From: Thalassotalea marina
GTDB taxonomy: Bacteria > Pseudomonadota > Gammaproteobacteria > Enterobacterales > Alteromonadaceae
NCBI RefSeq assembly: GCF_014656435.1
Contig: NZ_BNCK01000005.1
Coordinates: 186,001 to 250,000, forward strand
DNA: 64,000 nucleotides
Direction of reading: 5' to 3'
In this document: positions 10,817 to 41,111 of the stretch, one piece after another
Numbering within the stretch: position 1 is the first letter of the stretch
Layout: each line of letters begins with the position of its first letter
Translations under genes and position numbers: made by a program
Notes under the pieces: generated by a model
Databases searched by the model: none
What the model saw: only the letters and a program-made list of their open reading frames with translations
What the model was told of the DNA's origin: nothing

Positions 10817-11962
10817 ATGTTATCTTTGCCACCTCTTTCACTTTATATCCATATTCCATGGTGTGTGGAAAAATGCCCCTATTGCGACTTTAATTCTCAT
10901 GCCCTTAAGCATGATATCCCTGAAGTTGAATATGTAGAGCAACTGATACAAGATTTAGACGCAGACATAAAACGTTTTAACTTGTCACAACGCCCGCTAC
11001 ATTCCATATTTATTGGCGGTGGCACGCCTAGCCTCTTTTCACCCGATGCTATTGCAAGCTTGCTCAAGCAAGTTTTATCACGCTTTGAACATAAAAAAGA
11101 CATTGAGATCACCCTAGAAGCAAATCCAGGTACAGTGGAAGCAGATAAGTTTATTGGTTTTTATCAAGCAGGTGTTTCGCGTTTGTCTATCGGCGTTCAA
11201 AGTTTTGAGTCAGATAAGCTTATAAAACTTGGTCGAATTCACGATAGCAACCAAGCAAAAAGGGCCGGCCAATTGGCTCATGAATGTGGTATTAAAACCT
11301 TCAATTTAGATTTAATGCATGGTTTACCTTCGCAGCAATTAACTCACGCGTTAGATGACTTACGCACGGCGATCACTATTGCCCCTACTCATTTATCTTG
11401 GTATCAACTCACCATTGAACCTAACACTGCTTTTTATTCTAAACCGCCAACTCTGCCAGAAGATGAAACCTTATGGCTCATTCAAGATCAAGGTTTTGAG
11501 TTACTCAACAACGCTGGATATCAACAATATGAAATTTCAGCCTTTGCTAAACCCGGTTTTGAATGTCAGCACAATCTAAATTATTGGCGCTTTGGCGACT
11601 ATTTAGGCATAGGCTGTGGCGCACACGGGAAAATAACCGACCTCGACACCCAGCAAATTATTAGAACGGTAAAAGTTAAACACCCAAAAGGTTATCTTGA
11701 TACCAATCGTGAACATTTAGATCACATTAACAGCGTTGAAAAAGACGATATTCCTTTTGAGTTTATGATGAACCAACTACGTTTAGTTGAGCCGTTTTCT
11801 ATTCAGTCTTATCAAGCATATACAGGTTTGCACCCTTCGACTGTTTTGCCTGCTTTAAAAGCGGCACAAGATAAACATTTGATGAGTAACCAAGGCGATA
11901 ATTGGCAAGTCACTAAACTTGGCCACAGATATTTAAACAATTTGCTAGAGTCGTTTTTGTAA
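10817..11962 (+). CDS. hemW: radical SAM haem chaperone HemW
   Basis: Radical SAM protein related to HemN. HemW homologues bind haem and act as chaperones rather than as coproporphyrinogen oxidase. 381 residues. The [4Fe-4S] cluster cysteines are Cys16, Cys20 and Cys23 (WCVEKCPYCDF). Then come FIGGGTPSLF, the SAM-binding ITLEANPGTVE, and GVSRLSIGVQSF. The C-terminal HemN-like domain includes the FEFMMNQLRL region. It lies 31 bp after rdgB on the same strand and ends 14 bp before the convergent unknown gene. Confidence 0.95.
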   Translation: MLSLPPLSLYIHIPWCVEKCPYCDFNSHALKHDIPEVEYVEQLIQDLDADIKRFNLSQRPLHSIFIGGGTPSLFSPDAIASLLKQVLSRFEHKKDIEITLEANPGTVEADKFIGFYQAGVSRLSIGVQSFESDKLIKLGRIHDSNQAKRAGQLAHECGIKTFNLDLMHGLPSQQLTHALDDLRTAITIAPTHLSWYQLTIEPNTAFYSKPPTLPEDETLWLIQDQGFELLNNAGYQQYEISAFAKPGFECQHNLNYWRFGDYLGIGCGAHGKITDLDTQQIIRTVKVKHPKGYLDTNREHLDHINSVEKDDIPFEFMMNQLRLVEPFSIQSYQAYTGLHPSTVLPALKAAQDKHLMSNQGDNWQVTKLGHRYLNNLLESFL

Positions 11963-11976
11963 GCGGCTATAGCATT

Positions 11977-13380
11977 TCATATTTCATCTGGGCTAGCAGG
12001 TGCATTAGGAAAGCAGGCTTTTACCCCCAAAACAAAAGCGGTTGAATCGACAGAATCAGGCATAAAGGTTTGTGTTTGTGTCAGTGATATCGTGAGCTTA
12101 TCATCAATAATGTTAATGTCAGCAGGGCTAGACATTAACATTTGCCGTCCTATAAAGGTTAACGCAATTTTCTGAGCCTGTTCAAACGCTTTTTTAATTT
12201 GCAGCGCTTTACTTGAAGTAATTTGTAAACGTACTCCAGGATGTTTGCTAATAGCCACTGAGGTTAAAAAACCATATTTTCCATTAGCGCTAAAATCAAT
12301 GTTTGGCATAGGGCTAAATTGAAACCCAGTAACATCCTTATTTTTATTAGCAATTGCTTGGGCAATTGCTACGTTCCAATACCAATATTTACCTTCGCTT
12401 TTATCAAAAGCTTGCGGTGAAAACTCCACAATAGACACACCAGTAAACGCCATGGTTGCATTAATTGTATCGTTTACATCTAGCAATTGACTGAAACACG
12501 CTTCACCATCTAATGTAATATCTAATACATTTACCAAATTGGTTTGTTCACTTAGCTCGCCATCAATCACTGCTTTACATTGGTTATTTGCCAAACATTC
12601 AAGTGTTACATTGATAGAAAAACTTCCCGCATTTGGGCTATTAAGCGACGTTAAAATATCAGAGAGCGCGGTGGCGACGGCAAATTTTGGACGAAATGTA
12701 CTGGTTGTTTGCATGCCACCATTGTCAAAGGTTGGCGTTTGTACACCGGCCAATGCTTTAGCCAGATATCCATTATGCATTGGTGAAGCATTTTTAAGCG
12801 AAACACTACGGTTAATAGCGCTTAAATAGGCAGATAATGGCAACAAAATTGCCTGACCGCTTGCTGGTGTTTGATTAAGTAAGCTATGCAAATCTTGCGC
12901 GGTTAACATCTGATGGAGTGTTGTTGAGGGCTGTGCCCAACTATTTGCAATAGTTTCTATGATTGCGTCGATTTGAATGTTGTTTTGACTCGGATATGTT
13001 TGACGCCAACAGCTAATCAGGTTCATTTGTTTTGTACTAATATCAGCATTGTATTGCGCAAATAAACTTTGATCAGCGGCGCTAAGTTGAAAACTTATTG
13101 ACGATAAAGCCTCAATAAAAATATTGGTAAACGGCGCGTGCAACTCAATGCTCGTGCCATTAAATGAACACGACGAGCAGATCCATTGATAAGTTTTATC
13201 ATTAAACAACAAGGTACTGGGGTTAGAGTAATAATAAGGAAAGCCCCCTAACCCATTATCTTGATATGGCATAAACTGGACAAAGCCGGCTGATTCAGTA
13301 CTTGTTCGAGCAACCTTTTGTTGCTTTTTTGATAACGCAGCAGACGCTTTCGCGGCTAGCTTTTTGGCAATTTGCTCCAT
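11977..13380 (-). CDS. large protein of unknown function, paralogue of the next gene (copy A)
   Basis: I do not recognise this 467-residue family. It is clearly homologous to the gene at 13439-14863. Shared blocks include FPYYY near residue 47, FN-KTY-WI, PFTN-FI-AL, N-TPASGQ, a SLKNA block, and the longest one near residues 345-365 (NKDV-GFQF-P-PNIDFS-NG). There is no signal peptide or transmembrane helix; the first 30 residues are Lys/Ala/Gln-rich and helical. The N-terminal half looks alpha-helical, the C-terminal half beta-rich. The start has no Shine-Dalgarno sequence and lies directly after a hairpin with a T run. A Cys pair (CSSC) near residue 70 is absent from copy B. Probably cytosolic, or exported without a Sec signal. 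Confidence 0.85.
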   Translation of the reverse strand: MEQIAKKLAAKASAALSKKQQKVARTSTESAGFVQFMPYQDNGLGGFPYYYSNPSTLLFNDKTYQWICSSCSFNGTSIELHAPFTNIFIEALSSISFQLSAADQSLFAQYNADISTKQMNLISCWRQTYPSQNNIQIDAIIETIANSWAQPSTTLHQMLTAQDLHSLLNQTPASGQAILLPLSAYLSAINRSVSLKNASPMHNGYLAKALAGVQTPTFDNGGMQTTSTFRPKFAVATALSDILTSLNSPNAGSFSINVTLECLANNQCKAVIDGELSEQTNLVNVLDITLDGEACFSQLLDVNDTINATMAFTGVSIVEFSPQAFDKSEGKYWYWNVAIAQAIANKNKDVTGFQFSPMPNIDFSANGKYGFLTSVAISKHPGVRLQITSSKALQIKKAFEQAQKIALTFIGRQMLMSSPADINIIDDKLTISLTQTQTFMPDSVDSTAFVLGVKACFPNAPASPDEI

Positions 13381-13384
13381 AAAG

Positions 13385-13421
13385 AAAAAATACCGCTATC
13401 GCAGAAATCGATAACGGTATT
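13385..13421 (-). terminator. intrinsic terminator or attenuator between the two paralogues
   Basis: Reading on the minus strand, a 13-bp stem (AATACCGTTATCG with CGATAGCGGTATT, one G-T pair) with a 7-nt loop is followed by TTTTTTC. It begins 18 bases after the stop of copy B, and its T run ends only a few bases before the ATG of copy A. It can stop the copy B transcript, and any read-through would carry the hairpin in the copy A leader. Confidence 0.88.
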
Positions 13422-13438
13422 CACCTGACAAAGAAAAA

Positions 13439-14863
13439 TTAATCTTCAAGACCTGCAAGCGGATAAACCGTTTGCACGCCCAATACCCAACCTACAGAAT
13501 CAGTAGCTGCACCAGCAACTAACTCTTTGGGTGGTTCAAGTGTGATAGTCACTGTCGAATTTGACTGATCCACTTGTACACTATTTGAATAAGATGATTC
13601 TTTACCTCCAATACCCAAAGGTATACCTAAAAAGCTAATACCTGTTGATGCAGACTGTTCAAAGGTTTTTTGGATACGTTGGTAGTCGGCACTTTTCACC
13701 GTGATTTTAACCGTAGGATAGTTACTAATTGCGGCACCTTGAGTAAAACTGAATGGGCCGTTAGAAGAAAAATCGATATTAGGGTCTGGATGGAATTGGA
13801 ATCCACTCACGTCCTTATTACGGTTTTGAATCGCGTCTTGAATTGGCTGAGTCCAATACCAATTTTTTCGTGTTGCCTGATCATAAGCCACAGGGCCATA
13901 TTGCACTAAAGTGACACCAGGGAACGATAACTCAACCGTTGTTTCATTCTGGCTAGTTGCCACATCACTTTGAAAATAACTAGCATTGCCGCCAACATTA
14001 ACTGATAAGAAACCAAGTACAGGGAAGCTAGCAGAAGCACCACCAGATACTTTAACCTGAAATTCGTTTTGTGAAGAGCGATCAACTGTCATGCTCAGTT
14101 TTACCGCTTGGTTTTCATTTTTCAGGCTATTTTGAATACTCGATAAGCTGGTCGCTACTTGATATGCCGGATGATATTGTGTTGTGCTGTCGTTAAGTAA
14201 CATACCTCCGTTGTTTTCTGCAGAAAATTGAGCTGCTCTCAACGCTGCTGATAAATAACCAGTATTCATGGTTACTGCATTTTTCAGCGAAAGAACACTA
14301 GATAAAGCGTTTAAGTAATTAACAAACACTGGTACTACAGATTGGCCACTTGCTGGTGTGTTGTTAAGCGTTTGATTTAAATTAATCGACTCTTGAATAT
14401 CCATTAATGTTGTCGGTGGGTTAGCCCACTTGGTGGTGATTTCACTGACGATGTTATCTAGAGGTTGGCCGTCTCCCGCAGGAAACGTACCAAATGCTGA
14501 ACGCCAAGCCGTCAACACCGCGGTTTTTTGATCAACAGCGTTAGCATCAGCTTGATTTAACCTTTCTTGGTCGTCCGTTGACAACGAATAGCTAATCGCA
14601 CTAAGTGCTTTAATAAATTGATTGGTAAATGGTTGTCCTAACTGAACAGGATGGGTATTGGCTTTTAAACTAGCATCTATCCAGTTATAGGTTTTTGCAT
14701 TAAAAACAAGATTATTTGGGTCCTCGTAATAATAGGGAAAATTGCCTAAAGCATTTGTGTTAAAACTTTCCAGCGGAACACTACCAGTTGCTGAAGACAA
14801 GATGTCATTAGCCTGCTGTCTTAGCGCATCAATAATCACGCTAGCAGAAGTTGAATTACTCAT
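13439..14863 (-). CDS. large protein of unknown function, paralogue of the previous gene (copy B)
   Basis: 474-residue partner of copy A and upstream of it on the same strand. The ATG at 14863 has AAGGA 7-8 bases before it. Shared blocks keep nearly the same spacing: the NKDV block is at residue 349 here and 347 in copy A. No signal peptide or membrane helix is seen. A Gly/Ser/Val-rich stretch near residues 270-290 (VKVSGGASASFPVLGFLSV) and a Gly-rich stretch near 420-430 (FLGIPLGIGGK) are much weaker in copy A and could be membrane-active or strand-forming. Both proteins end with VLGV-x3-P close to the C-terminus. Function unknown. Confidence 0.88.
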   Translation of the reverse strand: MSNSTSASVIIDALRQQANDILSSATGSVPLESFNTNALGNFPYYYEDPNNLVFNAKTYNWIDASLKANTHPVQLGQPFTNQFIKALSAISYSLSTDDQERLNQADANAVDQKTAVLTAWRSAFGTFPAGDGQPLDNIVSEITTKWANPPTTLMDIQESINLNQTLNNTPASGQSVVPVFVNYLNALSSVLSLKNAVTMNTGYLSAALRAAQFSAENNGGMLLNDSTTQYHPAYQVATSLSSIQNSLKNENQAVKLSMTVDRSSQNEFQVKVSGGASASFPVLGFLSVNVGGNASYFQSDVATSQNETTVELSFPGVTLVQYGPVAYDQATRKNWYWTQPIQDAIQNRNKDVSGFQFHPDPNIDFSSNGPFSFTQGAAISNYPTVKITVKSADYQRIQKTFEQSASTGISFLGIPLGIGGKESSYSNSVQVDQSNSTVTITLEPPKELVAGAATDSVGWVLGVQTVYPLAGLED

Positions 14864-15239
14864 TTTCGTTTCCTTGTAAGATAAACTATTAAACGCGATG
14901 TAAAATCATCGAACTCTTACTACTCAACTACATGAACAACCTAGTGCTGATTTGCACTTGGGGAGAGTTAGAGGGACAAAAAGCGGATGGACAACTAGAA
15001 CAGAATACCCCCATCCTTGGGCTTAACTCTACAGGCATTAAAGTTAGTTGAAGTTAGAATGAATGCAACTAGCGAAGCGGCGTTTTTGTCGATAAATTTT
15101 TAATTTTTCTCTACTAGCGATGCAAGGAGTTGTTTATCAAAAGAATTTAAATAACAAATAAAATCAAAAAATTTTTTGTTCCCATTAATTGGTTTCTCGT
15201 TAAAATAGCCCACCTATTTTCACCACCACATTGCTTTTT
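14864..15239. other. gene-free region between copy B and tadA
   Basis: 376 bases without a convincing gene. It must hold the divergent promoters of copy B and tadA. Near the middle is a nested inverted repeat (14964-15030, listed separately). The tadA-proximal part is very AT-rich with A and T runs (about 15095-15200). I see no terminator, tRNA or known riboswitch. Confidence 0.6.
14964..15030. repeat. nested inverted repeat upstream of copy B
   Basis: Outer arms AGAGTTA (14964-14970) and TAACTCT (15024-15030); inner arms GGATGG (14985-14990) and CCATCC (15011-15016), with AAGC/GCTT between them competing for one base. The 20-nt central loop is unpaired. It sits about 100 bases upstream of copy B. 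It may be an operator or leader structure, or chance. Confidence 0.4.
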
Positions 15240-15767
15240 ATGAACGACTCAATCAACTCTAATTTGCTTACTGATGAATATTATATGCAGCACGCAATGT
15301 CGTTAGCCCATAAAGCACAAGCAATAGGCGAAATTCCGGTAGGTGCAGTTGTTGTTGCTAATGGTGAAATAATAGGCGAAGGCTACAACCAATCAATTAC
15401 CTTAAATGACCCTTCTGCACACGCTGAAATGCTTGCCATTCGCCAAGCTGGTAAAGTGTTAAATAACTATCGAATGCTCGAATGTACCTTGTACGTGACA
15501 TTAGAGCCCTGTCCTATGTGTGCAGGATTACTCGTACACAGTAGAATTAACCGCTTGGTTTTTGCCGCTAGTGATGAAAAAACCGGTAGCGCAGGCAGCG
15601 TGTTTAACCTAGTAAACCATGAACAACTTAACCACCAAGTAGAGGTTACTCGCGGTGTACTAGCCAATGAGTGCAGTGATATGCTGTCGAGCTTTTTCAA
15701 ACAACGCAGAAAAGAAATAAAAGCTGCCAAACTCGCCAAACGTCAACAAAATCAAACTGAAGAATAA
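15240..15767 (+). CDS. tadA: tRNA-specific adenosine deaminase TadA
   Basis: Deaminates A34 to inosine in tRNA-Arg(ACG). I start it at ATG 15240 (175 residues); a TTG three codons earlier is possible. Zinc and catalytic residues are visible: His61 and Glu63 in SAHAEM, Cys91 and Cys94 in LEPCPMCAG. The C-terminal helix with FFKQRRKEIKAAKLA is typical. It is followed 58 bp later by the photolyase genes on the same strand with no clear terminator between, so some co-transcription is possible. Confidence 0.96.
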   Translation: MNDSINSNLLTDEYYMQHAMSLAHKAQAIGEIPVGAVVVANGEIIGEGYNQSITLNDPSAHAEMLAIRQAGKVLNNYRMLECTLYVTLEPCPMCAGLLVHSRINRLVFAASDEKTGSAGSVFNLVNHEQLNHQVEVTRGVLANECSDMLSSFFKQRRKEIKAAKLAKRQQNQTEE

Positions 15768-15825: not shown

Positions 15826-17214
15826 TTGGCTGATCAACATAAAAACTATTCAAAAGGCATTTATTGCTTTACCGATGATTTAAGATTTCAAGACAATATT
15901 GCCTTGGCCAACACTATTGCACAGTGTGATGAAATCGCTTTCATTTATATACTCGATCCCCGTTGGTTTCAAAAAACCAACTACCAGCACACATGGATAG
16001 GCCAAGCTAAATGGCAGTTTATTAAACAGTCTCTTAGTTGTTTAAATCAGCAACTGGCTGAGCATGGTCATCAATTAACCTTGCTCCATGGCAACGTTGA
16101 ACACGTACTCTGTGAGCTAATTCGCGAAAATAACGTAAACTTTGTTGGCTTTGCAACACTAGTTGGCAGTAATGAACAAGTGTTATGGGCTGAACTTGCA
16201 ACAAAATGTGCTGATACGCATTTTGCTTCTGCAAATAATAGCATTATGTATTTGGGTGAGCGATTAAACTTAAAGCACGAATACCTTACCAGTTTTTCCC
16301 GTTTTAGGCGTTTTGTCGAAAAACAGCAAATCAAGATAGAACAACCAAGAAAGATCCACCTTGATGCATTACCCAGTAGACTGACACTTCAAAATCAACC
16401 GTCATTTAGTAAAGCGCTAACAGCACTCCCCTATTTCATTTCTGGCGATGTACAGGACGTTCAAACGCATGATTCTTTTTTCGGAGGAGAAAAAAGCGCT
16501 GTACAGCACTGTAAACAATATTTTGCTTCATCCGCTGCGTCTAATTATAAAACAACACGTAATGCGCTAGACGGTTGGCAAAACTCAACAAAATTCAGCC
16601 CTTATTTAGCCAATGGTAATGTGTCTGCAAGGCAAATTATGCAATGGCTTAAGCAATTTGAACTAGCGCATGGCGCGAGTGAATCAACCTATTGGATTTA
16701 CTTTGAACTACTGTGGCGTGAATATTTCCATCATTTAGCGAACTCGCTAGGTAATACACTTTACCGATTTTCTGGCTTAGCCCCCTGCGCGCCCAGCACC
16801 AGCTTTTATGCAGAACGGTTTAATAAATGGTGCAATGGTAACACCCCTTACCCCATAGTTAATGCCTGTATGAAGCAACTTAACCAAACGGGTTTTATGT
16901 CAAACCGCGGCAGACAACTTGTTGCCAGCTACCTAGTGAATGAGCTGGGTATTGATTGGCGTTATGGCGCCGCTTATTTCCAGCAGCAACTGATCGATCA
17001 TGATATTGCCAGCAATTGGGGCAACTGGCAGTACATTGCGGGCGTAGGCGTCGATCCCAGAGGCGGCCGACATTTTAACTTGCAAAAACAAACCTCACTT
17101 TACGACCCTGAACACACCTTTATCAACAAATGGCATGGGCAATTATGTGACGCAAGACTCGACTCAACAGACATGGTCGATTGGCCTATTGATTGGTCAA
17201 AGAAGGAAGATTAA
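15826..17214 (+). CDS. cryptochrome DASH / photolyase family protein
   Basis: FAD flavoprotein of the DASH cryptochrome group, which repair cyclobutane dimers mainly in single-stranded DNA and may have signalling roles. 462 residues. The N-terminal Rossmann-like antenna domain starts GIYCFTDDLRFQDN. The FAD domain contains WREYFHHLA, NACMKQLNQTGFMSNRGRQ and the DASH-type stretch SNWGNWQYIAGVGVDPRG followed by GRHFNLQKQ. The start must be TTG 15826 or later, because a TAG codon lies directly upstream in frame. The next gene starts 2 bp after its stop, so this is the first gene of a light-repair operon. Confidence 0.93.
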   Translation: MADQHKNYSKGIYCFTDDLRFQDNIALANTIAQCDEIAFIYILDPRWFQKTNYQHTWIGQAKWQFIKQSLSCLNQQLAEHGHQLTLLHGNVEHVLCELIRENNVNFVGFATLVGSNEQVLWAELATKCADTHFASANNSIMYLGERLNLKHEYLTSFSRFRRFVEKQQIKIEQPRKIHLDALPSRLTLQNQPSFSKALTALPYFISGDVQDVQTHDSFFGGEKSAVQHCKQYFASSAASNYKTTRNALDGWQNSTKFSPYLANGNVSARQIMQWLKQFELAHGASESTYWIYFELLWREYFHHLANSLGNTLYRFSGLAPCAPSTSFYAERFNKWCNGNTPYPIVNACMKQLNQTGFMSNRGRQLVASYLVNELGIDWRYGAAYFQQQLIDHDIASNWGNWQYIAGVGVDPRGGRHFNLQKQTSLYDPEHTFINKWHGQLCDARLDSTDMVDWPIDWSKKED

Positions 17215-17216
17215 AC

Positions 17217-18671
17217 ATGGCAATCAACCTTGTTTGGCCAAAACGTGATCTGCGCCAGCAAGATCATAAGCCACTCTTAGAGGCCTCTAAGAGTGGGCAC
17301 CCGGTATTGTTAGTCTATAACTTTGAGCCAATGTTGTTTGAAGATCAGCACTTCAGTGACCGACACTGGCGTTTTGTATGGCAGTCTTTAATAGACATTA
17401 AAAGCAAGATACCTCAAGGTGCCTTACATATAGTTTCTAAGGACGCTAAACAAGCTTTCAATGATATCCACCAAAAGTGGCATATAAATGCTTTATATTC
17501 CTATCAGGAAATAGGATTAAACAATACATTTAAAAGAGACATTGCCATTCAAAATTGGTGCCTAAAACGAGGTATTCAATGGACCGAATATCCAATCGGT
17601 GCGGTGATCAGAGCATTAAACTCGCGGCAAAATTGGGATACTCATTGGCAACAGGTAATGCGCTCATCACAAGACAATTTAAACCTAAGCCAAATTAACT
17701 GGGGACAAATTGGAACAACTGAATTATCAACTTTCTTAGTTAATAAATTAAATGAGCAATACAGCACCTTTCAACAAGGCGGTGAAAGTATGACGCATAA
17801 AGTTCTTGACTCATTTTTTCAACAAAGGGGAAAAAGCTATGCTTTTTCTCTTTCCAGCCCGTCACTTAGTGTTGAACATTGCAGTCGCCTTTCAGCTTAC
17901 TTAGCCTGGGGCAACATTAGCCTTAAACAAGTCTATCAAAAGCTATTGTCTTACTGGCATAAACCTAGTTGGCGAAGATCGCTGGTCGCCTTTAGTTCGC
18001 GATTACATTGGCATTGTCATTTTATTCAAAAGTTTGAAAGTGAATGCCAAATGGAGTTTTACTGCATTAACAAAGGGTATGAAGCATTACCTAGAGTAAC
18101 CGGTGATGAAGCCTTTGAAAAACTTCAAGCGTGGAAAACAGGTCAAACAGGTATTCCCATGGTAGACGCATGCATGCGCTCTCTTATTAACACCGGATAT
18201 TTAAATTTTCGCATGCGCGCTATGTTAGTGAGCTTTTTAACTCACCATCTAGCGTTAGATTGGCGTTTAGGTGTTAAACATTTAGCAAGCGTCTTTTTAG
18301 ATTTTGAGCCTGGAATTCATTACAGCCAGTTTCAAATGCAAGCCAGCGTCACTGGCATTAACACCATCAGAATTTACAATCCGATAAAACAAGGTGAGGA
18401 AAAGGATCCTGATGGTGAATTTATTAAAACATGGCTACCTGAACTCAATGAATTGCCAGCACCATTTTTTCACACACCGTGGGAAATGACTCCTATGGAA
18501 CAGCTTATGTACAACGTTGAACTTGGTAGCGACTACCCAATGCAGATCGTCGATATAAAACAAAGCTACAAAGCCGCACAATCGTTACTTTGGCAATGGA
18601 AAAGTAAACCACAAGTAAAAATAGAAGCACAACGCATTTTAGCCAAACATGTTAGGCCGAGTACAAGCTAA
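17217..18671 (+). CDS. photolyase/cryptochrome family flavoprotein
   Basis: Second photolyase-superfamily member of the operon, 484 residues from the ATG at 17217 (GAAGGA lies upstream). The antenna domain opens [18 protein letters not shown]. The FAD domain has [34 protein letters not shown] and [19 protein letters not shown], the arrangement seen in class I-like photolyases. However the stretch before RIYNP reads [17 protein letters not shown], not the NNGGWQW of E. coli PhrB, so this belongs to a divergent subfamily and CPD repair is not certain. Its stop overlaps the ATG of the DUF2256 gene by one base. Confidence 0.9.
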
Positions 18672-18808
18672 TGCGCAAACAGCATTTACCCACTAAGGTC
18701 TGTATAACCTGCAAACGCCCATTTACATGGCGTAAAAAGTGGCAACGTGATTGGAATAACGTCAAGTATTGCTCACGACGATGTAGCAGCGGTAAAAAAG
18801 GTAATTAA
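18671..18808 (+). CDS. DUF2256 mini-protein (zinc-ribbon-like)
   Basis: A 45-residue, very basic protein. It has Cys11 and Cys14 (VCITCKRPF) and Cys34 and Cys38 (YCSRRCSSG), a likely zinc-binding CxxC...CxxxC knuckle, and several Trp ([11 protein letters not shown]). This is the DUF2256 pattern. Such genes are often found next to cryptochrome or photolyase genes; function unknown. It starts in the stop codon of the preceding photolyase gene (TAATG) and ends 11 bp before the FeS photolyase gene, so all three are translated from one message. A small nucleic-acid or protein-binding partner is an inference. Confidence 0.9.
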
Positions 18809-18819
18809 AGAGAAACAAA

Positions 18820-20391
18820 ATGAAGCAGCAATATAAAACCATACGATTAGTATTGGGCGATCAACTCAATGCTAGTCACTCTTGGTTTCAAGAAAAGAAT
18901 AACGACACCTTGTATGTAATAGCCGAACTGCATCAGGAAACTGACTATGTTGTTCATCATATTCAAAAAGTTGTTGCCTTTTTTGCCGCGATGAAAGCGC
19001 TTTCTAGTGCATTAAACAAAGCAGGTCATCAGGTTTTACACTTAACGCTTGACGATACAAAAGATTTCCAAGACCTGCCTAGCCTGTTAGCACATTTACT
19101 AAAAAAATATTCGGCAACCGCTTTTGAATACCAGTTACCAGACGAATACCGCCTACGTGAGCAGTTATCAAAGTATACTCGCCAACTTGAAATTGATAGT
19201 TGTGCTTATGAAACACAGCACTTTTATCTTTCGGACAGTGAGCTTAGCGACTATTTTAAACAAGATACTAAACATCGAATGGAGCATTTTTACCGTAAAA
19301 TGCGCAGCCGTTTTAACCTTTTAATGGAAGGTTCATCCCCTCAGGGTGGGCAATGGAATTATGACGCTGACAATCGCAATAAAATTAAAGCGGATGACTT
19401 TGACAAAATTCCCGAGCCACTAATTTTTGAAAATGATTGTGACGACATCATTGAGCGCATTAAAGCGCACAAAATAAAAACCATGGGCATGATGACAAAC
19501 AACTTGTATTGGCCTATAAACCGAAGCCAATCTTTGGCGCTGTTAAGGTTCTTTTGTCAGCACTGCTTAAAATATTTTGGCCGTTTTCAAGATGCAATGC
19601 TAGATCAACAAGAGATGACTGTTCAAGAAAAATACTGGAGCTTACTGCACTCTCGTTTGTCTTTTTCATTAAATAGCAAAATGATCAGCCCACACCATGT
19701 AGTAAAGCAAGCTATCGAAGCTTATCAACAAAGTGATGGCGAGATAACTATTGCGCAAATTGAAGGATTTGTTAGACAAATCATCGGTTGGCGTGAATTT
19801 ATCCGTGGTATTTACTGGTTGAATATGCCGCAATATAGCCAGCTCAACTACCTCAACGCTAGCAACAAAATGCCGAGTTGGTTTTGGACAGGAAAAACTA
19901 AAATGAACTGTTTAAAGCATGCTATCTCACAATCGCTAGATTATGCCTACGCCCATCACATTCAACGTTTAATGATCACCGGTAACTTTTGTTTAATAAG
20001 CGGCATTGACCCGACTGAAGTTGATGCTTGGTATTTAGGCATTTATATCGATGCCATCGAGTGGGTTGAAATGCCCAATACCCGGGGCATGAGTCAGTTC
20101 GCAGATGGCGGTATTGTTGGCTCAAAAGCGTATGCCGCCAGTGGAAACTACGTAAACAAAATGAGTAACTATTGCTCCAATTGTCACTACAAGGTCAACA
20201 AAACGTTGGAAGATAACGCCTGCCCACTAAATTCACTATACTGGCACTTTATGGACAAACACCAAGACAAGTTTGCCAATAACCCAAGAAGCAGAATGGT
20301 ATACGCTAACTGGAATAAAAAAACTGACGCTCAACGCCAGCAAGTCCTAGATAAAGCAACCTCGCTGCTCATAGATATTGAAAATTTGTAA
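18820..20391 (+). CDS. iron-sulfur (6-4) photolyase-type protein (FeS-BCP class)
   Basis: 523-residue member of the FeS bacterial cryptochrome/photolyase class (PhrB of Agrobacterium, CryB of Rhodobacter), which repairs (6-4) photoproducts using FAD and a [4Fe-4S] cluster. The start IRLVLGDQLNASHSWF is typical. Candidate cluster ligands are Cys364 (KMNCLKH), Cys452 and Cys455 (YCSNCHYK) and Cys468 (ACPLN), with the same spacing as I recall for Agrobacterium PhrB. The catalytic region IIGWREFIRGIYW and the MPNTRGMSQFADGG loop are also present. AAAGAG precedes the ATG. Last gene of the light-repair operon. Confidence 0.94.
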   Translation: MKQQYKTIRLVLGDQLNASHSWFQEKNNDTLYVIAELHQETDYVVHHIQKVVAFFAAMKALSSALNKAGHQVLHLTLDDTKDFQDLPSLLAHLLKKYSATAFEYQLPDEYRLREQLSKYTRQLEIDSCAYETQHFYLSDSELSDYFKQDTKHRMEHFYRKMRSRFNLLMEGSSPQGGQWNYDADNRNKIKADDFDKIPEPLIFENDCDDIIERIKAHKIKTMGMMTNNLYWPINRSQSLALLRFFCQHCLKYFGRFQDAMLDQQEMTVQEKYWSLLHSRLSFSLNSKMISPHHVVKQAIEAYQQSDGEITIAQIEGFVRQIIGWREFIRGIYWLNMPQYSQLNYLNASNKMPSWFWTGKTKMNCLKHAISQSLDYAYAHHIQRLMITGNFCLISGIDPTEVDAWYLGIYIDAIEWVEMPNTRGMSQFADGGIVGSKAYAASGNYVNKMSNYCSNCHYKVNKTLEDNACPLNSLYWHFMDKHQDKFANNPRSRMVYANWNKKTDAQRQQVLDKATSLLIDIENL

Positions 20392-37127: not shown

Positions 37128-40100
37128 TTACACCGCGATTTGTTCCTTGCGGTAAACATTAGGTGTTACATCATATTTATCTTTAAAACACTTACTAAAA
37201 TAACTTTGCGAGTTAAAGCCATTCAATTGTGCAATTTCTCCAATACTTAAAGCAGACTGTGTTAACTGAACAGTTGCATTGTGCAACCGTACATCTTTAA
37301 TTAAATCAACAGGAGAAACCCCAAACAGCGCTTTAGTCTTAATTTGTAGATTTCGCTCGCTCATAAACATAGCTTTAGCGAGATCAGATAAAGTAAAATC
37401 GACATCTGCATAATGACGTTGTAATAATACATTGATTTGCTCAACAAACTTTTGATCTTTAGCACTAAATTCTGATTTTGCTTCTGGCACATTCTCAATC
37501 AAAGGAACAGCTTCTACCTCTCCATATTGAATAGATTGCAATGCTTTTTGCTGTGACATTGCACGTATCGACAAAATGTTGTTTAAAGTTGCCAACACTT
37601 CTTGTTTTGTAAATGGTTTTGGCAAAAAATCATCTGCTAGTAGCGTAAGCGTTTTTAGTTTTAACGCCTTTGATGGATATGCACTTAACATCAACACAGG
37701 TATATGGCTAATATCTTCACTTGTCCTCAATGTGTGCAACAGTTCTAAACCATTCATTTTTGGCATCATTACGTCTGAAATAATGACATCAGGCTGCCAC
37801 TCTTGTGCTACTTGAATACCAGAAGCGCCATCAACTGAAGACTTACAACAAAAGTGAACCGATAATATTTCGTTTAAATAACGACGAATTTCATCATTAT
37901 CATCAATGATGAGTAGTTTTTTGTTGGTCGTATTTTCTTCAAAAGGATTTTTTTGCGCGACATCTGCCATTTTCAATTCATACGCTATCGGCAGTTCAAC
38001 GGTAAAAGTTGCTCCATGCCTATAGTTTGATTGCAAACGGATTGATCCGCCTGCTTGATCAACTAAGCCTTTTACTATGGCCAATCCAAGACCATGCCCT
38101 GAACCATTGACATTCGCCGCTCTAAAATTACGCTCGAATATCTTTTCTTGCTCATTGGGTAATATACCAAGCCCATTATCATTAACACTGAGAACACACT
38201 TCCCTTCTATTTCTTGGATTTTAACCTGTATTTTTGTGTTTTTCCCAGCATATTTAATCGCATTTGATACAAGGTTCCCTAAAATAAGTTCAGCTTTTTC
38301 AGGTGATAGTTCTACAAATAGCGTGACATTTTCAACTAAATTTAACTGCAGTTGTTGGTTGTTTGCGTGAGCTAATGACTGCATGTCCTCAACAAGTCGG
38401 CTAGCAATATCTGAAATATTACAACTTCCTCCTAACTCACTTGAGCTGATCTGTTTCTCATTGAGAATATTATCAACAAGTACATTGAGCTTCTGAGCAT
38501 TTCGTTTTATACCCTGCAATTGTTGTTGTACTTTTCCTTGTGAAGTTTGTAATAACTCATTAGTAGGACCCAAAATAAGGGTTAATGGTGTTTTAAACTC
38601 GTGTGATACATTCGCTAGCAATTCATCTTTTGCACTGTTCATCATATTGGCTAGCTGCTTATCTTGTTCTGCTCGTTGCTTTTTACGGTATAACTGGACA
38701 AACCCTAAGATAATCGCAATTACCACAGCCAAATAAGCTGAAATTGCCCATTTGGTTAACCAAGGAGCGGCATTCACCTCTATCTTTATCGAACTAATTT
38801 CTCCCCATTCTGTATCGGGATATTTCGCTTTAACCTGAAGTTGATAACTGCCCGCTGGGATATTAGTAAAGGTCGCCACTCGGTTTTTAACATCTGTGGT
38901 CAGCCATTTATTATCGAAGCCGACTAATCGGTAGGCATATTCAACTTTCTCTTGATAAAAAGCACGCGGAGTAGAAAACTCTATACCGAACACAGAGTCT
39001 TGATGACCAAGGGATATTGCATCATCATCTGTTGTTCTATGATTAAGATCACCAAAATCGACTTTGCTGTTAAATATATAGAAGGATTCTAAAACTGTGG
39101 TTGGTGGCGTTTGTATGCGAGTAAGTTTACTCGGTTTAAAATAATTAAATCCATTGACGCCACCAAAATATAGCGCCCCTTGTGCATCTGCAAAGTGTGC
39201 ACCTAAAATAAATGATCTATCTTGAACACCGTCATTGATATTAAAATGTTTAAAAGTTTCTGAATCGTAGTTATATGCAGCAAGGCCATTATTAGTGCTA
39301 AGCCATAGCTGATTGTCATCTCCCTGATAAATACCAAATACATTTGCATTTGGCAGTCCGTGCTCAACACCGTATTGTTTGATCTTACCATTGGCTTGTA
39401 ACCGGTTGAGTCCATTCATGGTGCCTATCCATAGGTTTCCTCTATCATCTTTATAGAGCGCGGTAACCATATTGTCGGATAAACCTTCAGGCCCTTTTTG
39501 AACCTGAGTAAAAGTTTGATTTTGTTTATTGAAACGATTTAATCCTAAAAATGTCGCTACCCAGAGCGTATCTTTCCCATCATCTAGCAGTGCGACTACA
39601 GTATTTTGACTGAGGCTATTTTTATTATTAGCCTGATGCGAAAAGTGCCTTATATGTTCAGTTTTAGGATCAAAATGTACCAAACCTTTATTTGTCCCTA
39701 ACCACAAAGTGTTATCACTGCTGCTTGTAATTGAAAATATGTAGTTAGTCGGTAGACCCGATGCTTCGGTAAAGCGTTCGAAGTTATCCTGCTCAGCATT
39801 ATATTTTGCCAACCCTCCGCCATAAGTACCGACCCACACGCTGTTATCTGTGCTAGTGTGAATGGCAAATACATTATCGTTAGGCAAGCTATCAATATTT
39901 GATTTTTGATGTTGATAAGTTAGAAATTGCTTTTGGTTAGCTGGTCTCTTGTTTAACCCACCTCGGGTTCCTACCCACAAATTCCCGTTTTTATCTTTTG
40001 AAATTGCTCTTACAAAGGCATGACTGAGTGAGGCGCTATTATCTGGTATGTGTGTCGTATGGTTGAACTCACTTCTTCTTACTGAATATCGATGAAGCCC

Positions 40101-41111
40101 TTTACCATCTGTACCGAGCCAAATATCTTGATCACTTTCTAAAAACAAAGATAGCAAGTAGTTATTTTTAATACTGTTTTCATTATTTTTATTAACGGTG
40201 AATTGCTGAAAGTCACCGCTGATTGTGTCGTAAACGTAAAGCCCGCTGCCATAAGTATTTATCCATAACTCACCCGGGATTCTCTCGGTTATTGCCGTTA
40301 CCCAACCAGTGTTTAAGGAGGATTTTTCCAACACGAGTTGTTCATTTACTTTAGATAGCTTATACAAACCAGTTTTAGCGCCTATCCAAAGCTGGCCGTT
40401 TTGGTCAGTGCTTAACGTCCATATTTCTGACTGTATTTTTGTTGCATCATCTATCTGCAAATCAGCTGAAAACAAACGGCCTTTATCTAGATCTAGGTAA
40501 AACAAGCCTGTAGATGTGGCCAACCATATTTGGTGATTAACACTCGAAATAATGGCATTTATTTTTCCAACACTTTTAGCATCGTTAACAAAACGATCAA
40601 TGTGAGCTGTTGTTGGATTTATACGATATAAAACCCCGTCGGCACTTCCAGCCCATAGAAACTGTTTTTGATCAAAATACAGGCTGTTAAATCTATCATC
40701 CGTTATCGTTGAAGTGCTTTGTTTGTTAAAGAATTTGAAAGTATCAGTGTGAGTATTGTAGCGAGTAATACCAGCGGACTTGGTTGCAAACCACAAATAA
40801 CCTTGCTCGTCTTGAGCACATCCAGTGATCCAATTGCCAGGAGGGTTTTTCGTGCTGCCATCTGCTAAGTAAGATTGAAATTCAATGCCATTAAAACGAT
40901 TGAGGCCGCCCTGTGTACCAACCCAAAGATACCCTTTCAGCCCTCTCATCATACAATTAGCACTGCCTTGGCTTAGGTTTTGCTCAAAACCAAAATGCTC
41001 AAAGTAATCAACAAAGCTAGTTTTGACCTGTGCACTAACAGAGAGTGGCAAACAACTAGTAACTGTAAATATCACTGCAATGGCAGTAATAAAAAATCCT
41101 TGTTTAGGCAT
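37128..41111 (-). CDS. hybrid two-component system: beta-propeller sensor kinase, receiver and AraC regulator in one protein
   Basis: 1327 residues. A signal peptide (about 1-28) is followed by 14 Reg_prop-type repeats (LWVGT-GGLN-F style), i.e. two seven-bladed propellers, then a Y_Y_Y domain (about 710-780), a transmembrane helix near 787-807, a histidine kinase with phospho-His837 (SHEFKTPLTLIL) and ATPase motif NDNGLGILP, a receiver with Asp1113 (IISDVMMPKMNG), and a C-terminal AraC helix-turn-helix (about 1225-1320). So sensing, phosphorelay and DNA binding are in one chain. Such proteins, best known from Bacteroidetes, usually sense glycans; no glycan-use genes are nearby. No good ribosome binding site. 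Confidence 0.94.
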   Translation of the reverse strand: MPKQGFFITAIAVIFTVTSCLPLSVSAQVKTSFVDYFEHFGFEQNLSQGSANCMMRGLKGYLWVGTQGGLNRFNGIEFQSYLADGSTKNPPGNWITGCAQDEQGYLWFATKSAGITRYNTHTDTFKFFNKQSTSTITDDRFNSLYFDQKQFLWAGSADGVLYRINPTTAHIDRFVNDAKSVGKINAIISSVNHQIWLATSTGLFYLDLDKGRLFSADLQIDDATKIQSEIWTLSTDQNGQLWIGAKTGLYKLSKVNEQLVLEKSSLNTGWVTAITERIPGELWINTYGSGLYVYDTISGDFQQFTVNKNNENSIKNNYLLSLFLESDQDIWLGTDGKGLHRYSVRRSEFNHTTHIPDNSASLSHAFVRAISKDKNGNLWVGTRGGLNKRPANQKQFLTYQHQKSNIDSLPNDNVFAIHTSTDNSVWVGTYGGGLAKYNAEQDNFERFTEASGLPTNYIFSITSSSDNTLWLGTNKGLVHFDPKTEHIRHFSHQANNKNSLSQNTVVALLDDGKDTLWVATFLGLNRFNKQNQTFTQVQKGPEGLSDNMVTALYKDDRGNLWIGTMNGLNRLQANGKIKQYGVEHGLPNANVFGIYQGDDNQLWLSTNNGLAAYNYDSETFKHFNINDGVQDRSFILGAHFADAQGALYFGGVNGFNYFKPSKLTRIQTPPTTVLESFYIFNSKVDFGDLNHRTTDDDAISLGHQDSVFGIEFSTPRAFYQEKVEYAYRLVGFDNKWLTTDVKNRVATFTNIPAGSYQLQVKAKYPDTEWGEISSIKIEVNAAPWLTKWAISAYLAVVIAIILGFVQLYRKKQRAEQDKQLANMMNSAKDELLANVSHEFKTPLTLILGPTNELLQTSQGKVQQQLQGIKRNAQKLNVLVDNILNEKQISSSELGGSCNISDIASRLVEDMQSLAHANNQQLQLNLVENVTLFVELSPEKAELILGNLVSNAIKYAGKNTKIQVKIQEIEGKCVLSVNDNGLGILPNEQEKIFERNFRAANVNGSGHGLGLAIVKGLVDQAGGSIRLQSNYRHGATFTVELPIAYELKMADVAQKNPFEENTTNKKLLIIDDNDEIRRYLNEILSVHFCCKSSVDGASGIQVAQEWQPDVIISDVMMPKMNGLELLHTLRTSEDISHIPVLMLSAYPSKALKLKTLTLLADDFLPKPFTKQEVLATLNNILSIRAMSQQKALQSIQYGEVEAVPLIENVPEAKSEFSAKDQKFVEQINVLLQRHYADVDFTLSDLAKAMFMSERNLQIKTKALFGVSPVDLIKDVRLHNATVQLTQSALSIGEIAQLNGFNSQSYFSKCFKDKYDVTPNVYRKEQIAV

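What the first reader, a model, noticed from the sequence alone, without database searches (positions are those of the whole stretch)
11977..14863. Tandem pair of large paralogous proteins with no recognised family, inserted between core blocks
Two adjacent genes (467 and 474 residues) are clearly homologous over their whole length, yet I recognise no domain in either. In the best block (residue 347 of copy A, 349 of copy B) 18 of 23 positions are identical; elsewhere they differ widely, so the duplication is old and both copies were kept. Neither has a signal peptide. Shared helical first half with FPYYY and TPASGQ blocks, then a beta-rich second half with PNIDFS, suggests a two-domain fold such as a self-assembling or pore-forming protein; that part is inference. 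The flanking order (hemW on one side, tadA on the other) is ordinary core genome.
Basis: partly seen in the sequence, partly recalled or inferred. Interest (0 to 1): 0.75.

Follow-up and report, generated by a model that had tools for sequence, protein, structure and literature searches.

The report
Orphan paralogue pair split by terminator
Two neighbouring bacterial genes encode sister proteins that match no family in the libraries searched; such pairs, with a hairpin between the two genes, turn up in scattered unrelated bacteria and look like a two-part self-assembling system made in unequal amounts.

Summary
In detail: two same-strand genes (A, upstream, 13439-14863; B, downstream, 11977-13380) encode proteins 35% identical over 464 columns, without a match in Pfam, NCBIfam, PHROGs or PADLOC. 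AlphaFold models of A and of a relative match no PDB fold at E 0.001. In 4 of 4 other species of the genus hemW and tadA adjoin, so the pair is an island. Relatives are rare (4 of 395 family genomes, own included), yet 12 of the 14 loci found carry a tandem pair, in Colwellia-like bacteria, roseobacters and, more remotely, Cupriavidus plasmids. New: (1) all 12 gaps between the genes hold a stem of 11 or more pairs, against 5 of 44 control gaps; in the window it is terminator-like and leaves no room for a B promoter; (2) the window pair duplicated separately from the Colwellia/roseobacter pairs (AU p 4e-6); (3) a Gly/Ser-rich hairpin motif is in 13 of 14 A and 0 of 12 B. Most likely A is the abundant self-assembling subunit and B a scarce paralogue that starts, caps or tunes assembly. 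Pore formation is possible, not shown; an amphipathic-strand test was not significant.

The parts
13439..14863 (-). Gene A (474 aa), upstream member of the pair; acidic (pI 4.6), no Cys, 8 Arg; slower-evolving copy
11977..13380 (-). Gene B (467 aa), downstream member; faster-evolving copy (tree branch 1.60 against 0.44 for A), matches neither hairpin motif of A
13388..13422 (-). Intrinsic-terminator-like hairpin (14 pairs, 7-nt loop, T-rich tail) between A and B; the B start codon lies 7 nt after it
13922..14065 (-). Gene A residues 267-314: hairpin-1 region with a Gly/Ser/Ala-rich flank and hydrophobic tip (motif residues 285-294, FLSVNVGGNA); changed in B
13589..13633 (-). Gene A residues 411-425: hairpin-2 motif FLGIPLGIGGKESSY; mostly deleted in B
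14231..14578 (-). Gene A residues 96-211: helical region; part of it (about profile positions 113-199) is repeated at the C terminus of the six B proteins of Colwellia-like bacteria and roseobacters, not in the window's B
11963..15230 (.). Inserted segment between hemW and tadA, absent in 4 of 4 other species of the genus; no convincing terminal repeats; no integrase among the ORFs read

Best explanation
A and B are the two parts of a horizontally acquired, dispensable, self-assembling protein system made in unequal amounts. Transcription starts upstream of A; most transcripts stop at the hairpin after A, and read-through gives a little B. A, an acidic protein with a helical N-terminal half and a beta-rich C-terminal half carrying two glycine/serine-rich hairpins, is the major subunit and oligomerises. 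B, a fast-changing paralogue that has lost those hairpins, joins the same assembly in few copies and starts, caps or tunes it. Shown: the pair, its order, the hairpin between, the loss of hairpin motifs in B, the island nature; well supported: separate duplications. Inferred: termination and the A-over-B ratio, oligomerisation, the A-B contact, the role of B.
For: Pairing: 12 of 14 loci are tandem same-strand pairs. Gap hairpin: stem of 11 or more pairs in 12 of 12 A-B gaps against 5 of 44 co-directional control gaps of 40-160 nt; folding z of -3 or below in 8 of 12 gaps; in the window it is scored as terminator-like and B starts 7 nt later, which leaves no room for a B promoter in the gap, and no sigma-70-like site on the minus strand lies inside A. 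Separate duplications: window A and B are sisters (100/100), and one clade of all B copies is rejected (delta lnL 39.2, AU p 4.45e-6). Asymmetry: window B branch 1.60 against A 0.44; hairpin motif 2 in 13 of 14 A and 0 of 12 B, motif 1 in 12 of 14 A (at its own site in 11) and 2 of 12 B; 1 of 271 background frames each (motifs drawn up after seeing the sequences). Island. Internal termination that leaves genes upstream more abundant than those downstream is documented in an archaeon (PMC10450193, abstract and outline seen).
Against: No expression, interaction or assembly data. No fold match, so the reading rests on gene architecture. The 12 gaps are not independent (about five lineages), and the three Cupriavidus hairpins have no T-rich tail and unremarkable folding z. 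Terminator-like sites in 11850-15400 are no more frequent than in shuffles (4 found, mean 3.4), and no sigma-70-like site on the minus strand lies between A and tadA, so the A promoter is assumed. Codon usage favours A over B in the window (Fisher p 0.02) but A ranks only 19 of 43, and the difference is absent in G011 and G105, present in G167. Two loci have no B (L030, G1092). The tree carries a long-branch warning, the B group was named after a first tree was seen, and gene conversion between A and B could imitate a separate duplication. An mRNA 3'-end stabiliser would weaken the ratio argument.
Confidence: 0.42

Rival explanations
1. A special case of the best explanation: a two-component beta-hairpin pore-forming system that works like CDCL pairs: many A subunits insert their two hairpins into a membrane and one or few B subunits start the ring.
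For: Two hairpin motifs with hydrophobic tips in A, mostly absent in B; hairpin-1 region of A less charged (median 6 against 9.5 of 60 residues) and richer in glycine (8 against 5) than that of B, ranges overlapping (12 A, 10 B); paired paralogues with inferred unequal dose; CDCL pores are 1 long to 29 short subunits with four strands per short subunit (PMC11952106, passages); a subtilase gene lies in 5 of 14 loci, roseobacter-type ones, and CDCLs need proteolysis.
Against: Strand-alternation test below p 0.05 in only 2 of 12 A proteins and 0 of 10 B (A: p 0.028-0.60); no Pfam family at all for window A and B or above cut-off for six relatives; no significant fold match; no export signal seen; no such subtilase in the window.
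Confidence: 0.2
2. Another special case: a non-membrane structural system in which A forms a filament, sheet or surface layer and B caps or anchors it; the glycine/serine hairpins are packing elements.
For: Acidic, Arg-poor A (pI 4.2-6.1, 1-8 Arg in 14 A proteins); gap hairpin suggesting high A to B; no enzyme or pore fold found.
Against: No export signal or surface-anchoring motif seen by eye; codon usage of window A is average for the window (rank 19 of 43).
Confidence: 0.25
3. A is an enzyme or ligand-binding protein with a new fold and B is a catalytically dead paralogue that regulates it.
For: Asymmetric divergence of B; regulator genes beside A in several lineages (kinase and response regulator in Cupriavidus L016 and in Methylococcaceae, Trans_reg_C in roseobacters).
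Against: Of the 14 invariant columns of 13 proteins, A and B together, only T58, D98 and N347 are polar, so no evident catalytic set; since B is held to be dead, A-only conservation would be the better test and was not analysed for this.
Confidence: 0.13
4. B is just a decaying duplicate; the pairing and the hairpin have no shared function.
For: B diverges fast and lacks motifs; two loci lack B.
Against: B frames are open over the family region in all 12 pairs; a B clade is kept from Colwellia-like bacteria to roseobacters with its own added C-terminal module; pairs appear to have arisen at least twice.
Confidence: 0.12

Closest known systems
CDC-like proteins (CDCL long/short pairs), e.g. Elizabethkingia anophelis
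   Same: Paired components in very unequal dose; four strands (two hairpins) per pore-forming subunit; proteolytic activation (PMC11952106, abstract and 12 of 34 passages seen), with a possible parallel in the roseobacter subtilase.
   Different: No Pfam hit and no significant fold match; hairpin regions are predicted as strands here, not as helical bundles; the partner B lacks the hairpin motifs.
Bacterial gasdermins
   Same: Two membrane hairpins per subunit and protease control (PMC11952106, passages); a gasdermin oligomer appears at rank 9 of a PDB search.
   Different: That match has E 0.23 and TM-score 0.12, so it is not evidence; A is longer (474 aa against a 228-residue chain) and paired with a paralogue.
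Operons with internal terminators that set subunit ratios
   Same: Hairpin inside a two-gene unit; upstream product expected to be more abundant (PMC10450193, abstract and outline seen, an archaeon). Gas-vesicle genes gvpA/gvpC as comparison are recalled; one search listed papers, none read.
   Different: Unrelated proteins; termination not measured here.

Membership tests
MACPF/CDC/CDCL | MACPF or thiol-cytolysin sequence domain | tested here: not met
   No Pfam family at E up to 10 for window A and B; six further relatives at E up to 1 gave one below-cut-off hit to an unrelated domain
MACPF/CDC/CDCL | Twisted central sheet with two helical bundles that become hairpins | tested here: inconclusive
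   AlphaFold models (pLDDT 65.1 and 78.6) have no PDB match at E 0.001; best E 0.02 and 0.068, unrelated proteins
MACPF/CDC/CDCL | Pore formation in membranes | not testable with these tools
   Needs a leakage assay
Bacterial gasdermin | Gasdermin fold | tested here: inconclusive
   8sl0 at E 0.23, TM-score 0.12 of query; not significant
Bacterial gasdermin | Adjacent activating protease | tested here: not met
   Window neighbours are hemW and tadA; a subtilase is present in 5 of 14 loci, all roseobacter-type, not in the window. Fused gasdermins lack an operon protease, so this is not absolute
ClyA-type alpha-pore-forming toxins | All-helical protein (recalled criterion) | tested here: not met
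   C-terminal half predicted as strands
Known anti-phage defence systems | PADLOC model match | tested here: not met
   0 families for A and B at E up to 1
Unequal two-component operon (works-like class) | Terminator-like hairpin between the two genes | tested here: met
   12 of 12 A-B gaps with a stem of 11 or more pairs, 5 of 44 controls; T-rich tail (4 or more T in 8) in 6 of 12 and 2 of 44 by the same call
Unequal two-component operon (works-like class) | Measured excess of the upstream product | not testable with these tools
   Needs RNA-seq, Term-seq or proteomics

The most novel reading that the evidence does not exclude
An undescribed protein family with its own fold forms a large two-part assembly in marine and soil bacteria. 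The same solution, a hairpin-bearing major subunit followed by a terminator and a hairpin-less minor paralogue, evolved more than once, which would make the A-B split itself a requirement of how the assembly is started or closed.
Probability: 0.25. Interest if true: 0.8.

Novelty: new variant of a known kind. Interest (0 to 1): 0.55.

Why it matters
A protein family with no detectable relatives in the curated libraries or solved structures searched, patchily spread among unrelated bacteria, is a candidate for a new fold. If the A-terminator-B layout was reached separately in several lineages, it is a natural repeat experiment on why an assembly needs a rare, degenerate copy of its own subunit. 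Both claims can be tested on two genes with ordinary laboratory methods.

Tried and rejected
Viral and plasmid origin: viral-contig scans with four queries gave no relative; tblastn of A found nothing in plasmids or phages; only the distant G105 protein found three Cupriavidus megaplasmids. That protein had 0 matches in 398 genomes of the phylum, a search without a positive control.

Conserved partner genes: the roseobacter subtilase, PAP2 protein, regulator and 215-aa protein are all four present in 5 of 14 loci (L029, L031, L032, L033, L069) and none of them in the other nine. Genome-wide, the 215-aa protein was found in 2 of 10 genomes or records and the PAP2 protein in 6 of 10, outside the two roseobacter-type genomes only as unlinked hits (E 2e-35 to 0.002), one of them in the window genome on another contig, E 7e-8. 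They are not part of the common unit.

Amphipathic strands: the alternation test in hairpin region 1 was below p 0.05 in 2 of 12 A and 0 of 10 B proteins, so it does not support membrane insertion. Two A and two B proteins of the Cupriavidus pairs were left out of that test.

Codon bias as sign of high A expression: weak and inconsistent.

Mobile-element ends: one 14-nt imperfect direct repeat (86%) near both ends, 11947-11960 and 15076-15089, not tested against chance; a 13-mer taken from the left end has 3 matches with up to 2 mismatches, 1.2 expected. No Rfam match at gathering score.

Paper searches for a description of the family gave none that I recognised in the listings; they cover only open-licence PMC text, and the search words could easily miss it.
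Full report
WHAT IS THERE. The two minus-strand genes are real and at the stated place: B, 11977-13380 (467 aa), and A, 13439-14863 (474 aa); A lies upstream. They are 35% identical over 464 aligned columns with 19 gap positions and are the only two matches in the 4.87-Mb genome. The flanks are hemW and tadA by NCBIfam equivalog models.

NO KNOWN FAMILY. Window A and B have 0 families in Pfam, NCBIfam and PHROGs at E up to 10 and in PADLOC at E up to 1. Window A has no PDB sequence hit at E up to 10, and a profile of 13 relatives, A and B, has two hits, the better at E 0.3. Six relatives lack Pfam families above cut-off, as do three more and G1092 at E up to 0.001. HMMER's filters hide most weak matches, so this is absence at that sensitivity.

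AN ISLAND. In 4 of 4 other species held of the same genus the hemW and tadA matches overlap or end within 90 nt of each other, and A and B are absent (earlier search of the same four). In the window 3268 bp separate them. No integrase is among the ORFs read and no convincing terminal repeats were found.

WHO ELSE HAS IT. Matches: 2 of 59 nearest relatives, own genome included; 4 of 395 genomes of the family, own included; own genome only among 398 of the phylum; 2 of 17 of the genus of G011; 3 of 295 of the family of G797, G797 included; 6 loci in genome contigs (22 pattern matches, 6 confirmed). The last come from three Tateyamaria, Roseivivax lentus, a Methylococcaceae metagenome bin and a Colwellia bin; the Colwellia contig has the same length (106157) and match positions as G167, so I count it once. 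A remote branch lies in G105 and three Cupriavidus megaplasmids. Its link to the window family rests on the C-terminal part: BLASTP 24% over 167 columns, E 4e-6 for one comparison, profile-profile probability 92.8, E 4e-7 over 151 columns, and the 4-member profile hit G105 at E 1.7e-4. Against it: another pair of members gave E 0.15, and the 13-member profile found only 1 of the 4 remote genomes or records, at E 0.007. I treat it as probable. Without this branch the count is 8 pairs in 10 loci.

MOSTLY TWO. Fourteen loci hold the family: window, G011, G167, G105, Cupriavidus (3), Tateyamaria (3), Roseivivax, G960, G1092, Methylococcaceae. Twelve are tandem same-strand pairs; G1092 and Methylococcaceae have one copy. 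I call the upstream copy A. In 11 of the 12 pairs A is also the copy with hairpin motif 2 (Roseivivax A misses the expression) and B never has it, so the order follows sequence type and not only my naming.

HAIRPIN BETWEEN. Each of the 12 A-B gaps (52-125 nt) holds a stem of at least 11 pairs, starting 8 to 35 nt into the gap, against 5 of 44 co-directional control gaps in 17 stretches (Fisher p 1e-8). The controls are automatic ORF calls, one of the 5 positive controls is the gap after the single-copy Methylococcaceae gene itself, and the 12 gaps come from about five lineages, so the p-value is only a guide. Folding z is -3 or below in 8 of 12, -1.8 in Roseivivax, and between -1.6 and +0.5 in the three Cupriavidus gaps. 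A T-rich tail (4 of 8) follows in 6 of 12 and in 2 of 44 controls, by a count that absorbs part of T runs into the stem. In the window the stem is 14 pairs with a T-rich tail, and B begins 7 nt later; in the whole region, however, terminator-like sites are not more frequent than in shuffles (4 against 3.4). Inference: transcription mostly ends after A, and B is made by read-through. No consensus promoter on the minus strand was found between A and tadA or inside A.

SEPARATE DUPLICATIONS. On a tree of 15 proteins window A and B are sisters with 100/100 support; the six Colwellia/roseobacter B proteins form their own clade. Holding all B copies together costs 39.2 log-likelihood units, AU p 4.45e-6 (same picture with 18 rows). 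The group was named after the tree was seen, and warns of long branches meeting (the B clade and the window pair). Window B has the longer branch (1.60 against 0.44); long-branch attraction would be expected to pull it alone towards the other B copies, and it did not go there. Gene conversion between A and B is not excluded. The G105/Cupriavidus pairs were not placed in a tree; G960 copies join each other, with a long-branch warning.

WHAT B LOST. Two motifs with a hydrophobic tip and Gly/Ser-rich flanks occur in A: motif 2 in 13 of 14, motif 1 in 12 of 14 (at its own site in 11; TatA3 matches only at the motif-2 site). In B they occur in 0 of 12 and 2 of 12 (two Cupriavidus proteins), and each in 1 of 271 background frames. 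I wrote the expressions after seeing the sequences. A proteins are acidic (pI 4.2-6.1) with 1-8 arginines; B proteins are above pI 8 in 6 of 12. In the window pair the arginine contrast is absent (8 and 6). In the six Colwellia/roseobacter B proteins a part of the helical region is repeated at the C terminus.

STRUCTURE. AlphaFold of window A: pLDDT 65.1, pTM 0.55. Of the Colwellia-bin A: 78.6 and 0.68. Both: helical first half with one long helix, beta-rich second half. Foldseek: no match at E 0.001 in PDB for either, or in BFVD for the second, the only one searched there. At this model quality a missed fold is possible.

NEIGHBOURS. Five loci (three Tateyamaria, Roseivivax, G1092) share a subtilase, a PAP2 protein, a Trans_reg_C-TPR regulator and a 215-aa unknown; the other nine have none of them. 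Cupriavidus L016 has a histidine kinase and LuxR-type regulator upstream, Methylococcaceae a hybrid kinase and AraC-type regulator. None is common to all, so A with B is the unit.

MECHANISM. Shown: pair, order, gap hairpin, motif loss, island. Well supported: separate duplications. Inferred: A in excess, A oligomerises, B joins and starts, caps or tunes. CDC-like proteins show that a paired system with 1 long to 29 short subunits exists (PMC11952106, abstract and passages), and internal termination goes with lower downstream products in an archaeon (PMC10450193, abstract and outline). Whether the assembly is a pore, a filament or something else is open; the amphipathic-strand test did not favour a pore. 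The pore and scaffold rivals are special cases of the best explanation, so the confidences overlap.

NOVELTY. No description was recognised in the listings and 120 of open-licence PMC papers; most subscription papers are not held. The family looks undescribed; the layout is a new variant of unequal two-component operons.

Noticed in passing
window 15826-20391: Three photolyase/cryptochrome-like genes in a row beside the island: a DASH cryptochrome (above cut-off), a second photolyase-like protein below all cut-offs, and a third with no NCBIfam hit, named from recall only.
   Followed up: partly
L033 3907-5094, L031 3748-4935, L069 12528-13724: PAP2-type proteins of the roseobacter clusters begin with tripeptide runs (SAY x10, NAL x7, NAY x9), different in letters but alike in period.
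   Followed up: partly
L033 6948-7595, L069 9904-10722: A 215-aa family of unknown function (no Pfam hit) next to a Trans_reg_C-TPR regulator, linked to A in 5 of 14 loci.
   Followed up: partly
L015 2050-5879: Beside the G105 pair: a FemAB-like/aminotransferase fusion (802 aa) and a 4'-phosphopantetheinyl transferase, as in a small biosynthetic cluster.
   Followed up: no
L068 489-4616: Beside the G960 pair: a berberine-bridge-type FAD oxidase, a 611-aa protein without Pfam family, and a phage tail collar-domain protein.
   Followed up: no
L030 9625-17207: The single-copy Methylococcaceae gene is followed by a sulfatase, a protein with a weak propeller hit and a phosphoesterase-family protein.
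   Followed up: no
window 37128-41111: A 1327-aa protein like hybrid histidine kinases, with a PorZ-type match at residues 291-461 below cut-off.
   Followed up: no
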